Of a stretch of 64,000 nt of DNA, positions 175 to 54,988 are shown piece after piece (within the stretch, counting starts at the first letter, position 1; the number at the start of each line of letters is the position of its first letter). The notes below the pieces were generated by a model, which saw only the letters and a list, made by a program, of their open reading frames with translations, had not been told where the DNA came from and did no database searches. The translations under genes were made by a program, and so were the position numbers. Location of the stretch: positions 1-64,000 of the forward strand of contig NZ_KB895427.1 of assembly GCF_000374845.1 (NCBI RefSeq), in the 5' to 3' direction. The DNA is from Paenibacillus terrigena DSM 21567. Its GTDB lineage: Bacteria > Bacillota > Bacilli > Paenibacillales > Paenibacillaceae.

Positions 175-236
175 TTCGGGGTCCCTGCAAAGTATCAGAT
201 TCGACATCAAGCTAAGACACCACTTTGCGGGACTAT
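175..236 (+). repeat. Dispersed intergenic element, copy 1 of 4
   Basis: Begins TTCGGGGTCCCTGCAAAGT and ends CACTTTGCGGG. It has the same layout as the copies near 7845, 51399 and 54926. The GCAAAGT of the left arm pairs with ACTTTGC of the right arm. It starts a few bases after the T-run of the rRNA terminator. Most diverged of the four in the middle part (TCGACATCAAGC). Confidence 0.75.
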
Positions 237-323
237 ATATGTATTTTTTACCTGAATATCCTTCAACCCCCATTCAAGATTGCAGGGATTTACGCCCATA
301 CTACGGGGTAGGAGGTGGAAGAC

Positions 324-1535
324 ATGCCAAATCAACTCAAGTTGCTCTTAAATCTTCTTGGACTGGCAATGATTCTAACCAGTTGTCAATCTTCAGCAGC
401 TCTATCGCAAAAGAACGCACAAACGGCTCAATCTCAAGGGACATATTCTTCTTATACACCCGAACAAGCTCAACATGTATTGGCACATAAGCTGCCGAAG
501 AAAATTCATGCCCGGGGAATCTACGTTTCTGGATGGGTTGCTGGGAGTAATAAAGCACTCAATCGAATGATTGGACTGTTAGATCGGACCGATTTGAACA
601 CACTTGTCATTGATGTGAAGGCCGATGAAGGAAGATTAACATATACGTCTTCCATTCCACTTGTGAAAGAGATTGGTGCGGATGCTAACCCTGCCATTCA
701 AGATATTCGCGCTCTGCTCAATCGGCTGAAAGCCAAACAAATTTATACGATTGGCCGTATCGTCACTTTTAAAGATCCTTACCTCGCCAAGAGAAAGCCA
801 GAATGGGCATTACATAAGAAGAATGGAGCCGTATGGCATGATGTCAAAGGGACAGCATGGCTGGATCCTTACTTAGAGAAGACATGGGATTATAATATTG
901 CAGTTGCAGTTGAAGCTGCGCGGTTCGGCTTTGATGAAATTCAATTCGATTATGTGAGGTTCCCGGACAATGCAAGACGAGTGAAGCAGGAAGTCGCCTT
1001 TACTAATCAGCAAGGACGGACTCGTGCGGAGGCCATTCGTCAATTCCTCCATCGCGCACGGCCTGCGATCCATGCTGCAGGCGCCTATGTGTCGGCAGAT
1101 GTATTCGGACTGGTCACTTCCGAGAAGAATGATATGGGCATTGGTCAAGTGTGGGAACAAATTGCAAGCGAAGTAGACTACATCTCCCCAATGACGTATC
1201 CTTCGCACTATTCCAGTGGAGTCTATGGGATCACCCATCCTGATTTGGCACCTGGAAGCGTCATTCGGCATGCCATGATCGATGCGAAGAAGCGAAATGA
1301 CGAGATCACAGCTTCGAATTCAGAGCAAGTCATCGCTTCTCAACCTGGATATCAACGATCCGCTAACGATCCAGCGGAGATCAGACCATGGTTGCAGAAT
1401 TTTACTGCCACATGGATGCGCTCTCATCGCTCGTACGGGGAGAGTGAGGTAATTCAGCAAGTTAAAGCGTTAGAGGGACAAGGGATTCATCAGTTTTTGC
1501 TGTGGAATTCGAAGTGTAAATATAACTACAAATAA
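324..1535 (+). CDS. Putative glycoside hydrolase lipoprotein (DUF4015)
   Basis: 403 aa. The N terminus is a lipoprotein signal ending LTSC (Cys about residue 21), so the protein should be tethered to the outer face of the membrane. The rest matches the DUF4015 / PF13200 family of TIM-barrel glycosidase-like proteins: ARGIYVSGW opens the domain, followed by TLVIDVKADEG, then GRIVTFKD and DEIQFDYVRFP, which carries the acidic residues expected in the active site. Substrate unknown; cell-wall or capsule polysaccharide is an inference. I prefer ATG 324 over GTG 315 because AGGAGGT at 310-316 is correctly spaced for 324 and overlaps 315. Confidence 0.8.
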   Translation: MPNQLKLLLNLLGLAMILTSCQSSAALSQKNAQTAQSQGTYSSYTPEQAQHVLAHKLPKKIHARGIYVSGWVAGSNKALNRMIGLLDRTDLNTLVIDVKADEGRLTYTSSIPLVKEIGADANPAIQDIRALLNRLKAKQIYTIGRIVTFKDPYLAKRKPEWALHKKNGAVWHDVKGTAWLDPYLEKTWDYNIAVAVEAARFGFDEIQFDYVRFPDNARRVKQEVAFTNQQGRTRAEAIRQFLHRARPAIHAAGAYVSADVFGLVTSEKNDMGIGQVWEQIASEVDYISPMTYPSHYSSGVYGITHPDLAPGSVIRHAMIDAKKRNDEITASNSEQVIASQPGYQRSANDPAEIRPWLQNFTATWMRSHRSYGESEVIQQVKALEGQGIHQFLLWNSKCKYNYK

Positions 1536-1562
1536 CTGAATTATATGACTATTTCGGATTCC

Positions 1563-1591
1563 TTGACAGCCCATACCCCCTTTGCTAAGAT
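1563..1591 (+). promoter_or_regulatory. SigA-type promoter of guaB
   Basis: TTGACA (1563-1568), 17-base spacer, TAAGAT (1586-1591). Transcription would start near 1598, giving an approximately 50-base leader with no obvious riboswitch fold. Confidence 0.7.
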
Positions 1592-1649
1592 GAACAATAA
1601 TATTTGACGGCAATACTTAAAAATACAGATTTAAGGGAGGAACTATCCG

Positions 1650-3107
1650 GTGTGGGAAACGAAATTTGCTAAAGAAGGATTAACTTTTGATGATGTGTTG
1701 TTGGTGCCTCGAAAGTCAGAGGTGCTACCGCGTGAGGTTGATATTTCTGTATCGCTCAGTAAATCGGTGAAATTGAACATTCCTCTAATTAGTGCAGGTA
1801 TGGATACAGTAACGGAAGCTGCGCTCGCTATTGCGATGGCACGTGAGGGCGGTATTGGGATTATTCATAAAAATATGACGATTGCACAACAAGCGGAAGA
1901 AGTGGACCGTGTTAAACGTTCCGAGAGCGGCGTTATTACCAACCCATTCTCGCTTACTCCTGATCACCACGTCTACGATGCGGAAGCATTGATGGCAAAA
2001 TATCGTATATCTGGTGTTCCGATCGTCGATGAAAATAATAAGTTAGTCGGGATCTTAACAAATCGCGATTTACGTTTCGTACATGACTTTGCGATCAAAA
2101 TCAATGAAGTGATGACACGTGAGAACTTGGTAACGGCACCGGTGGGTACAACCCTTCAAGCAGCAGAAGGCATCCTTCAGAAGCACAAAATTGAGAAGCT
2201 TCCGATTGTAGATGAGACGAATACCCTTAAAGGCCTCATTACGATTAAAGATATTGAGAAAGCCATTCAATTCCCACGCGCTGCAAAAGATGCACAAGGT
2301 CGCCTGCTAGTAGGGGCAGCGGTTGGAATCTCGAAAGATACATTTGAACGGACAGAAGCACTTGTTCAAGCAGGTGCGGACGTGATTACAGTGGATTCAG
2401 CACACGGACATCACATTAACATCGTTGAAGCGGTTCGTAAGCTTCGCGAACTCTATCCTGATCTAACAATCATCGCAGGGAACGTTGCAACAGGCGAAGG
2501 TACACGCGAATTGATCGAAGCTGGTGCATCCGTTGTCAAAGTCGGTATCGGTCCAGGTTCGATCTGTACAACGCGTGTAATCGCAGGGATTGGTGTTCCA
2601 CAAGTAACTGCAGTTTATGATTGCGCAACGGTTGCTCGTGAATACGGTATTCCAATTATTGCAGATGGTGGGATCAAATATTCCGGTGAGATTGTAAAAG
2701 CAATAGGTGCTGGCGCAACGGCGGTAATGCTCGGAAGCCTATTCGCAGGTACAGAAGAAAGCCCAGGCGAGACAGAAATCTACCAAGGCCGCAGCTACAA
2801 AGTATACCGCGGAATGGGTTCACTCGGTGCGATGAAAGAAGGCAGTAAAGACCGTTACTTCCAAGAAAACGAGAAGAAGCTCGTTCCAGAAGGTATTGAA
2901 GGTCGTGTTGCTTACAAAGGGCCATTAGCAGATACGATTCACCAACTTATGGGTGGTCTGCGTGCAGGAATGGGCTACTGCGGTACTGCATCAATTGAGG
3001 AATTGAAGAACGATACACAATTCGTTCGGATTACAGGCGCGGGTCTTCGTGAGAGCCACCCACATGATGTACAGATTACGAAAGAAGCGCCGAACTACTC
3101 GGTGTAA
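1650..3107 (+). CDS. guaB: Inosine-5'-monophosphate dehydrogenase
   Basis: 485 aa, full length for the family. Catalyses NAD-dependent IMP to XMP, the committed step to GMP. The TIM barrel is interrupted by two CBS domains (about 95-205). Catalytic Cys306 lies in GPGSICTTR, and the flap carries RGMGSL and KDRYFQ. GTG start with SD AAGGGAGGAA about 10 bases upstream. A perfect 10-bp terminator follows, so it is probably monocistronic. Position after an rRNA operon and before dacA and pdxST is the B. subtilis origin-region order. Confidence 0.98.
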
Positions 3108-3144
3108 TGGTTCGATTTTACCAAATTTTATAAGTCTAAATCTC

Positions 3145-54267: not shown

Positions 54268-54311
54268 ACACGTTTACCTCCCGTTGACAAGCATGTACAG
54301 CATGTATATGT

Positions 54312-54339
54312 TTGCAATTTCAATAATATTAGCTAAAAT
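54312..54339 (+). promoter_or_regulatory. Promoter of ywhD
   Basis: TTGCAA (54312-54317), 16-base spacer, TAAAAT (54334-54339). Confidence 0.5.
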
Positions 54340-54369
54340 AAAATTAAATCACTTGGAGGTATAATGCGG

Positions 54370-54870
54370 ATGAGTTCTGAAGAGCAAAAACCGAAGAAAC
54401 AGCTAGCCCTGAATGTTGTTAGCAAGAAGGAACATAAGGGATTTGGCGCAGGTTCAATCGACTTGAATAATGTCTCCCCGGTCATTATCGATCAAGGAGA
54501 AGCTTATATTGATATTGGTGCAATGCACGCGAAGAGTAAGGTGGAACGCGGGATTAAATTCCTGACGAACCGGGAAGATGTGCCGAATGGCCGGAAATGC
54601 TGGATCGTCTGGGTTGCGGTTGACCGTAATGAAGAAGGTCCGTTCTACGGCGGTATGACGGCTTGTGAAATGGCTGTTGATCCGGAGATCAAGCGCGGAT
54701 GGAAAATTCTTGCGGAGCATGTGAACAAGCTGGATTATGCGTTGAAACGCCGTGTGATGCTGGAAGGACTAGATGCGGAGGAGAAGAAGCTTCTTCGTGA
54801 GTTGCTCATGCAGCACAATCCAGAATGGTGGGAGCGTACCAGCGATAGCGTGAAGGAAGCATTAGCATAG
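54370..54870 (+). CDS. ywhD: YwhD family protein
   Basis: 166 aa, PF08741 family. LALNVVSKKEHKGFGAGSID opens it, EAYIDIGAMHAKSKVERGIK and WWERTSDSV are conserved. Function unknown. In B. subtilis it lies next to pbpG and speEB as here, though here pbpG is convergent. ATG 54370 is nine bases after GGAGGT; ATG 54364 is too close. Confidence 0.88.
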   Translation: MSSEEQKPKKQLALNVVSKKEHKGFGAGSIDLNNVSPVIIDQGEAYIDIGAMHAKSKVERGIKFLTNREDVPNGRKCWIVWVAVDRNEEGPFYGGMTACEMAVDPEIKRGWKILAEHVNKLDYALKRRVMLEGLDAEEKKLLRELLMQHNPEWWERTSDSVKEALA

Positions 54871-54883
54871 GGCTATATTATAG

Positions 54884-54927
54884 AAGAAGAGACAGCGATC
54901 CGAGATGGATGGCTGTCTCTTTTTTTC
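54884..54927 (+). terminator. Terminator of ywhD
   Basis: GAGACAGC pairs with GGCTGTCTC, with inner GATCC/GGAT; seven T follow, running straight into repeat copy 4. Confidence 0.85.
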
Positions 54928-54988
54928 GGGGCCCCGTTAAGTGCCTGAATCACTTCGAAGCCGAGTCCCCACTTTGTGGGGTTATTTT
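54926..54988 (+). repeat. Dispersed intergenic element, copy 4 of 4
   Basis: TTCGGGGCCCCGTTAAGT, TGCCTGAATCACTTCGAAGCC and CCCCACTTTGTGGGGTTATTTTT. Right half is the best match to the consensus; the left arm has a two-base difference. It fills the space between the terminator of ywhD and the stop codon of convergent pbpG. Confidence 0.8.

What the first reader, a model, noticed from the sequence alone, without database searches (positions are those of the whole stretch)
175..54988. Four-copy folded intergenic element with a compensatory base-pair change
Copies at 175-236, 7845-7910, 51399-51461 and 54926-54988, all on the + strand. Consensus: TTCGGGG(T/C)CCCCGCAAAGT, a short middle with CTGAATCACTTCGAAGCC, then CCCCACTTTGTGGGG and a T-rich tail. 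The left CCCCGCAAAGT can pair with the right ACTTTGTGGGG (one G-U). In copy 3 the arms read CAAAAT and ATTTTG, so both partners of one pair changed together. The right arm alone can also form a terminator-like hairpin, giving two alternative folds. Copies 1, 2 and 4 start within a few bases of a terminator T-run. This could be a small RNA, a terminator add-on or a REP-like sequence. I know no described family it fits.
Basis: seen in the sequence. Interest (0 to 1): 0.75.

Follow-up and report, generated by a model that had tools for sequence, protein, structure and literature searches.

The report
Mobile hairpin repeat behind transcription terminators
The four copies belong to a large family of short mobile DNA repeats in Paenibacillus and other Bacilli, not described in anything I could search, that fold into one conserved hairpin and settle in the run of Ts just behind gene terminators, a spot where they probably do little harm.

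Summary
In detail: all four copies are present and the long arm-to-arm stem is real. The own genome has 46 copies, and 157 of 295 sampled genomes of the same family match. In a class-wide sample 58 of 398 genomes match, 30 of them from five other families. No Rfam family fits. Occupied and empty sites in related species show insertion in or beside the T-run behind an intrinsic terminator, in the terminator's orientation at the nine junctions I could read. The left end varies (about 2-24 nt), the right end less. There are no terminal inverted repeats and no constant target duplication. Orthologous copies diverge about as fast as their flanks, so I read it as a non-autonomous mobile repeat. The mobiliser is unknown: neither Y1 transposase nor RVT_1 reverse transcriptase was found in the own genome. 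A second, different hairpin repeat shares its 5' leader. New variant of the small interspersed repeats (REP, BOX/RUP, SPRITE).

The parts
172..244 (+). element copy 1; stem arms about 183-193 and 222-232; follows the 5S rRNA terminator (hairpin about 125-167 plus T-run, by eye)
   Evidence: sequence; model hit 57.0 bits; 5S rRNA 3-119
7842..7915 (+). element copy 2; stem arms 7853-7863 and 7893-7903; follows a tRNA terminator (hairpin about 7802-7833, T-run to 7839, by eye)
   Evidence: 80.2 bits; tRNA 7697-7782; same-genus genome G001 holds what reads as a shortened remnant at this place (L210)
51396..51469 (+). element copy 3 with the G-C to A-U paired change; stem arms 51408-51418 and 51447-51457; abuts the stop codon of a - strand gene ending at 51463
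   Evidence: 66.8 bits; ORF 51463-52266 -; pair type AU counted
54921..54993 (+). element copy 4; stem arms 54932-54942 and 54971-54981; follows the terminator (hairpin about 54889-54919, T-run to 54926, by eye) of the + gene ending at 54870; right end abuts the stop of the convergent - gene ending at 54988
   Evidence: 66.0 bits; genes

Best explanation
A family of about 65-88 bp non-coding, non-autonomous mobile elements. Each has a conserved 11-bp stem (CCCCGCAAAGT / ACTTTGTGGGG, with a conserved G.U), a loop with two conserved motifs (CTGAATC or CTCGGAAT, and CTTCGAAG), an AT-rich 5' leader of variable length and a TTATTTT tail. SHOWN by sequence comparison: copies are present or absent between close species; readable insertions lie in or beside the T-tract right after an intrinsic terminator, in its orientation; the stem covaries across Bacilli. 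INFERRED: an enzyme acting in trans mobilises it; the folded + strand (RNA or single-stranded DNA) and the leader are what that enzyme recognises; terminator T-tracts serve as safe sites, so copies build up and then decay. A side effect may be a backup terminator (stem plus TTATTTT) behind the host gene's own.
For: Copy number: 46 in the own genome, 33 and 15 in two congeners, 30 in G201 at E <= 1e-6; 157 of 295 family genomes, 13 of 19 genera; 58 of 398 class genomes, 13 of 146 genera. Mobility: of 12 G201 sites whose flanks were fully in the query searched in six related genomes, 11 were examined and gave an unoccupied or remnant site in at least one relative; nine give readable junctions (L083, L108, L109, L110, L111, L112, L114, L115, L118), L116 and L117 are unclear, and the twelfth (L113) was not examined. 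Other relatives are occupied at several of these sites (flank matches 74-98 nt apart at L083, L108, L109, L111, L114, L116, L117). Targeting: 67 of 123 copies with a terminator within 100 nt upstream on the same strand, 11 of 123 on the opposite strand, 3 of 123 downstream, against 47 of 1188 control points. Structure: 97.4% of cells paired, slid controls 38-56%; 15 both-sided changes, shuffle mean 1.5, 0 of 500. Strand: the pair that is usually G.U is a standard pair in 53 of 53 copies, 46 of them G.U, a mismatch on the other strand. A second, different hairpin repeat of one genus shares the AATTTATATGTTTT-type leader, and in G133 it lies directly in the tail of an element copy.
Against: No mobilising gene was found. 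56 of 123 copies have no terminator by the strict detector. In other families the element was found in tRNA and rRNA operons in both orientations, so terminator targeting is not universal. Decayed own-genome copies more often keep the right half than the left, which could mean some retained function. Bias to the leading strand is 24 of 30 in G201 and 31 of 33 in G001 (origin and terminus placed only from 20 GC-skew samples each), against a coding share of about 0.8 and 0.75 in those samples, so G001 shows an excess that I do not explain.
Confidence: 0.8

Rival explanations
1. How it moves, option 1: DNA element mobilised in trans by an unidentified transposase or recombinase that recognises the single-stranded hairpin (as HUH enzymes do) or the leader in duplex form.
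For: One conserved hairpin with conserved loop motifs and a strand-specific G.U; Y1 transposases are present in 8 of 10 other genomes tested; two different hairpin repeats share the 5' leader, as expected if one enzyme recognises it.
Against: Y1 absent from G000, G002 and G133; no model match in 20 fetched Y1 loci. I did not search systematically for a longer element with the same ends.
Confidence: 0.5
2. How it moves, option 2: RNA-templated insertion (SINE-like retroposon). A transcript ending in GGGGUUAUUUU anneals by its U-tail to the A-strand of a terminator T-tract, is copied by a reverse transcriptase (for example that of a group IIC-like intron) and is often 5'-truncated.
For: At the nine readable junctions the left end lies about 2-24 nt before GGGG while the tail is at least TTATTT or ATATTTT in 8 of 9 (L114 has TTACC). 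T-tract target and fixed orientation. Eight related introns in G201 follow T-runs, two of them beside an element copy. Group II introns of bacterial class C are reported to insert just after terminators (PMC8919778, passages read).
Against: No RVT_1 hit in G000; none at E <= 1e-8 in G002 or in five genomes with 14 or more element matches (G052, G063, G196, G240, G274). No similarity of L083 to the intron beyond shuffles. Over all 30 G201 copies the tail is at least 6 of 7 bases in only 20. Where the target is itself a T-run, tail and target bases cannot be told apart. Slippage between T-runs could also shorten left ends.
Confidence: 0.18
3. A conserved non-coding RNA or cis-acting terminator module kept by selection at each site.
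For: Covarying stem over Bacilli; stem followed by a T-rich tail; the orthologous pair L040/L072 keeps both arms while the loop changed; same tRNA spacer in nine genomes.
Against: Presence/absence polymorphism. Over 15 orthologous pairs the arms differ by 0.14-0.19 and the loop by 0.22 per site, about as much as the flanks, and 28 of 46 changed stem pairs are unpaired in at least one partner. Downstream gene identities were not examined.
Confidence: 0.15
4. Relic of, or target mimic for, group II introns, without mobility of its own.
For: The intron 5' exon TTTTTTGATAG (two introns; a third has GATTG) equals the junction of several element copies, and two of eight introns have the element as 3' exon.
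Against: Empty sites lack both the element and the ATAG bases, so the element arrives as a unit; genomes without RVT_1 hits carry many copies.
Confidence: 0.06

Closest known systems
SPRITE, BOX and RUP repeats of Streptococcus pneumoniae (PMC3049150, passages read)
   Same: small interspersed repeats read as non-autonomous mobile parasites, enriched between convergent genes; SPRITE resembles a rho-independent terminator
   Different: SPRITE has an 18-bp duplex and is reported from pneumococcus, less often S. mitis and rarely other streptococci; here an 11-bp stem with a conserved loop of about 30 nt, insertion behind host terminators, and spread over Bacilli
REP sequences with RAYT (Y1) transposases (recalled)
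   Same: short palindromic intergenic repeats, many per genome, sometimes in tandem (three copies at G000 C6:364892-365109)
   Different: no Y1 transposase in the own genome and no copy in 20 fetched Y1 loci of other genomes
Group II introns of bacterial class C (PMC8919778, passages read)
   Same: insert just after rho-independent terminators; the G201 introns follow T-runs. That these are class C is my inference from their sites
   Different: about 1.94 kb with a reverse transcriptase; the element is under 100 bp with no similarity beyond shuffles
Bacillaceae-1 RNA, Rfam RF01690
   Same: found in two of the same tRNA-array loci (L330, L332)
   Different: other position and other sequence; the hits do not overlap the element

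Membership tests
REP/RAYT | Y1 transposase (TnpA-REP) in the genome | tested here: not met
   0 matches of PF01797 in G000; 0 in G002 and G133, present in 8 of 10 others tested
REP/RAYT | copies flanking the RAYT gene | tested here: not met
   no R2 match at E <= 1 in 20 Y1 loci, 63,743 bases
MITE (classical) | terminal inverted repeats | tested here: not met
   in L083 the left arm starts about 29 nt from the left end and the right arm ends about 7 nt from the right end; the ends GATAG... and ...TTATTTT are not inverted repeats (by eye)
MITE (classical) | target-site duplication | tested here: inconclusive
   TTTT or TTTTG on both sides at L083, L108, L112; none clear at L115; six bases lost at L109
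Rfam families | match at gathering score | tested here: not met
   none at the four window copies; in 20 other loci only rRNA models span or flank it; relaxed searches on copy 4 and L083 gave chance-level hits
Intrinsic terminator | GC-rich stem followed by a U-tract | tested here: met
   stem plus TTATTTT consensus tail, each tail position 97-120 of 145 as consensus; termination itself not tested
Small interspersed mobile repeat | presence/absence polymorphism at precise sites | tested here: met
Retroposon (SINE-like) | constant 3' end, variable 5' truncation, reverse transcriptase in the cell | tested here: inconclusive
   ends fit at most young junctions but not at all copies; RVT_1 absent in G000 and some element-rich genomes

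The most novel reading that the evidence does not exclude
A bacterial counterpart of SINEs: a short transcript whose own terminator U-tail primes its copying into the T-tracts of other terminators, moved by a reverse transcriptase encoded elsewhere and 5'-truncated on insertion.
Probability: 0.17. Interest if true: 0.88.

Novelty: new variant of a known kind. Interest (0 to 1): 0.58.

Why it matters
It adds a widespread repeat family to Bacilli, with a definable target (the T-tract behind terminators) and natural empty sites, so the question of what moves such orphan repeats becomes directly testable. If it moves through RNA it would be the first short SINE-like element in bacteria that I know of (recalled; one library search on this, listed no such case). 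In practice its copies lie in 3' regions and operon spacers of many genomes and may mislead terminator and small-RNA prediction (inference).

Tried and rejected
Small RNA gene with its own promoter: the TTTATA before GGGG looks like a -10 box, but I saw no conserved -35 in the profile and the leader varies in length.

Replication-linked (polar) element: orientation follows the replichore, but coding sequence in the samples is also mostly leading-strand, so I claim no more than gene orientation, with an unexplained excess in G001.

Stop codon supplied to convergent genes: 14 of 23 convergent downstream genes stop within 9 nt of the right end, but at L118 the relative without the element reads the same bases there, so I take this as bidirectional terminators lying next to stop codons.

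Wobble asymmetry as proof of an RNA strand: CG-to-UG against CG-to-CA was 40 to 17 in the stem, but C-to-T and G-to-A at 13 conserved sites outside it (ten in the loop, three in the 5' GGGG) were 92 of 1015 and 47 of 870, so no clear excess.

Small central hairpin: no covariation. Pseudoknot of the 5' GGGG with the loop CCCC: one loop position varies freely. Plasmids and phages: no match to window copy 2 at E <= 0.01. IS605-type ends: the seven copies of one family that I printed look unrelated. In one of 20 Y1 loci (L341) a short match to the leader beat the shuffles (29 against 24); it turned out to belong to the second repeat family, about 170 nt beyond the insertion sequence.

Limits. Family and class searches scored only 16 and 12 candidates per genome, so copy counts there are lower bounds. 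Gene calls come from a home-made scorer and often fail in G001. One search used 123 of 124 copies (one too near a contig end) and controls from G201 and G001 only. Alignment A3 used 34 of 145 first-set copies and 19 of 21 far copies (L321 and L323 dropped as near-duplicates). The far copies were found with a model that rewards pairing, which inflates the paired percentage; in the 145-copy set the both-sided changes are 14 against 3.2. Flank identities compared with the element are local BLAST values, not a neutral rate. Phyla and classes beyond Bacilli were not searched.
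Full report
WHAT IS THERE. The four reported copies were read directly; a filters-off scan with model R2, which has these four in its training set, shows no fifth copy in the window. The own genome (G000, 6.36 Mb, 40 contigs) has 46 copies at E <= 1.2e-4 (model R1 built from 27 own-genome copies). Two congeners have 33 and 15 at E <= 0.01. One of these, G002, is very probably Paenibacillus selenitireducens ES3-24, because its contig of 857,983 bases has the length of NZ_MSZX01000001.1 (inference). 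In the bacterial family 157 of 295 sampled genomes and 13 of 19 genera match at E <= 1e-5. In a class-wide sample 58 of 398 genomes, 13 of 146 genera, match at E <= 1e-6; 28 of the 58 are of the own family and 30 belong to families f2, f8, f12, f14 and f23. A tight pattern of the Paenibacillus form hit 13 stretches on ten contigs of seven named organisms, all Paenibacillus.

ANATOMY. The core is GGGG-N-CCCCGCAAAGT-A, a loop of about 30 nt with CTGAATC (CTCGGAAT in many copies outside the family) and CTTCGAAG, then ACTTTGTGGGG and TTATTTT. In genus g13 a leader such as GATAGATAAGAATTTATATGTTTT precedes GGGG. Over 53 copies the long stem is paired in 97.4% of cells; sliding the partner gives 38-56%. 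There are 15 cells changed on both sides against a shuffle mean of 1.5, reached in 0 of 500 shuffles. One pair occurs as CG, AU, UG, GC and UA. In 145 Paenibacillaceae copies 93.2% of cells pair, with 14 both-sided changes against a shuffle mean of 3.2 and a maximum of 10 in 1000. The pair at columns 17 and 61 is G.U in 46 of 53 copies and a standard pair in all 53; on the opposite strand G.U would be a mismatch. I read this as evidence that the + strand folds, though a count of wobble changes gives no clear strand excess. The right-arm hairpin has no both-sided change and does no better than shuffles. Single copies fold only modestly well.

WHERE IT SITS. With a strict detector, 67 of 123 copies in four genomes have a hairpin plus T-tract in the 100 nt upstream on the same strand; 11 have one on the opposite strand and 3 downstream on the same strand; of 1188 random intergenic points in G201 and G001, 47 do. 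In 58 of the 67 the hairpin ends 7-37 nt before GGGG. The upstream gene is co-directional in 97 of 115 copies with a called upstream gene, and 14 of 23 convergent downstream genes stop within 9 nt of the right end (home-made gene calls).

IT MOVES. Flanks of G201 copies were joined and searched in relatives. Of the 12 sites fully covered, 11 were examined and each has a relative without the element or with a remnant. Nine give readable junctions; L116 and L117 are less clear. At L108 three relatives read CTGTTTTTTGCAT, while G201 reads CTGTTTTTTG-ATAGAATTTTTATGTTTT-[element]-TTATTTTGCAT. L083, L112 and L111 behave alike; L110 sits in a TTATTTT tract; L114, L115, L118 and L109 are the others. 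Further relatives are occupied at several of the sites (flank matches 74-98 nt apart). Bases shared by both sides are TTTT or TTTTG at L083, L108 and L112, none is clear at L115, and six bases are lost at L109, so I claim no fixed duplication. At the nine junctions the left end lies about 2-24 nt before GGGG; the tail is TTATTTT, TTATTT or ATATTTT in eight and TTACC in L114. Over all 30 G201 copies the tail matches at least 6 of 7 bases in 20, and the 24-nt leader match reaches 20 or more in 8.

AFTER INSERTION. Between orthologous copies (15 pairs counted, one near-duplicate pair left out) differences per site are 0.19 in the left arm, 0.14 in the right arm, 0.22 in the loop, 0.22 in the tail and 0.35 in the 5' GGGG; the flanks of these pairs are mostly 80-92% identical. 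Of 46 stem pairs that changed (16 pairs of copies), 28 are unpaired in at least one partner. This looks like decay rather than strong selection at each site. L040/L072 is an exception, with intact arms and a changed loop. Several decayed own-genome copies keep the right half but not the left. Window copy 2 reads as a shortened remnant in G001, and three tandem copies in G000 face one in G001.

WHAT MOVES IT. Unknown. Y1 transposase (PF01797): none in G000; present in 8 of 10 other genomes, not in G002 and G133; none of 20 fetched Y1 loci has a copy. Reverse transcriptase (PF00078): none in G000, eight in G201; 190 of 295 family genomes at E <= 1e-8, but not G002, G052, G063, G196, G240 or G274, the last five with 14-16 element matches. 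The eight G201 introns follow T-runs; two (L272, L273) have the element as 3' exon, and three 5' exons read TTTTTTGATAG or TTTTTTGATTG, like element junctions. Group II introns of bacterial class C are reported to insert just after terminators (PMC8919778, passages read). So both may share a target. I cannot say whether the intron homes to the element's junction or its reverse transcriptase moves the element.

A SECOND REPEAT WITH THE SAME LEADER. Looking for the leader without the core in the 1.77 Mb held, 19 of 24 distinct sites are followed by a GGGG-like core and 5 are not; two of the five (L134, L341) lead into a different hairpin, CGCTGAAACGGTACCGTCC...GGACGGCAAAGCCGTTTC. A search for that hairpin listed ten sites, of which I read eight as real copies (L108, L121, L134, L193, L219, L222, L290, L341) and two (L195, L202) as chance; most of the eight have the same kind of leader, and in L290 (G133) it starts directly in the tail of an element copy. 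So two unlike hairpins seem to share an end and perhaps a mobiliser. This came late and was not pursued. It speaks for a leader-recognising enzyme and against a mechanism that recognises only the 3' end, so I lowered the RNA option.

KNOWN OR NOT. No Rfam family matches. Bacillaceae-1 RNA lies in two of the same tRNA arrays, elsewhere and with another sequence. Ten literature searches in an open-licence library found no description; most subscription papers are not held. Most hits were seen as listings only; passages were read in two papers. The nearest described kind is the SPRITE/BOX/RUP set of pneumococcus (PMC3049150).

VERDICT. A real and widespread family of mobile hairpin repeats, undescribed as far as I could search, that in Paenibacillaceae favours the T-tracts behind terminators. 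Mobility and targeting are well supported by comparison; the intermediate and the enzyme are open.

Noticed in passing
L108 locus 1968, L121:1573, L134, L193, L219, L222, L290, L341: A second hairpin repeat (CGCTGAAACGGTACCGTCC...GGACGGCAAAGCCGTTTC) in genus g13 shares the AATTTATATGTTTT-type leader with the element; in L121 and L290 it lies directly behind an element copy.
   Followed up: partly
L329, L331, L332, L333, L334, L335, L336, L338, L339: In nine genomes of family f23 the related element lies between tRNA-Glu(ttc) and tRNA-Val(tac) in all nine tRNA-array loci run through the tRNA finder, in the tRNAs' direction in five and against it in four. In the two that I compared by eye (L329, L332) its 5' leader goes with it. 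Either the unit inverts in place or it entered the same spacer repeatedly.
   Followed up: partly
L320:1471-1544 and L321: In G506 a related element lies inside the 23S rRNA gene, like an intervening sequence; six places in this genome share the same score, two were checked.
   Followed up: partly
L160, L161, L327, L328: Copies in the 23S-5S rRNA spacer on the strand opposite to the rRNA (by eye in G001, with Rfam in L327 and L328); the G001 copies have a C-G to A-U change on both sides of the stem.
   Followed up: partly
L324, L325: In G411 the element seems to sit inside the loop of a larger terminator-like hairpin (by eye).
   Followed up: no
L265, L267, L269-L274: G201 carries eight related introns behind T-runs; two have an element copy as 3' exon, and their 5' exons resemble the element junction.
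   Followed up: partly
window 51007-51143 (-): c-di-AMP riboswitch (Rfam RF00379) near copy 3.
   Followed up: no
G000 C6:364892-365109: Three tandem copies with a 72-bp period where same-genus G001 has one.
   Followed up: partly
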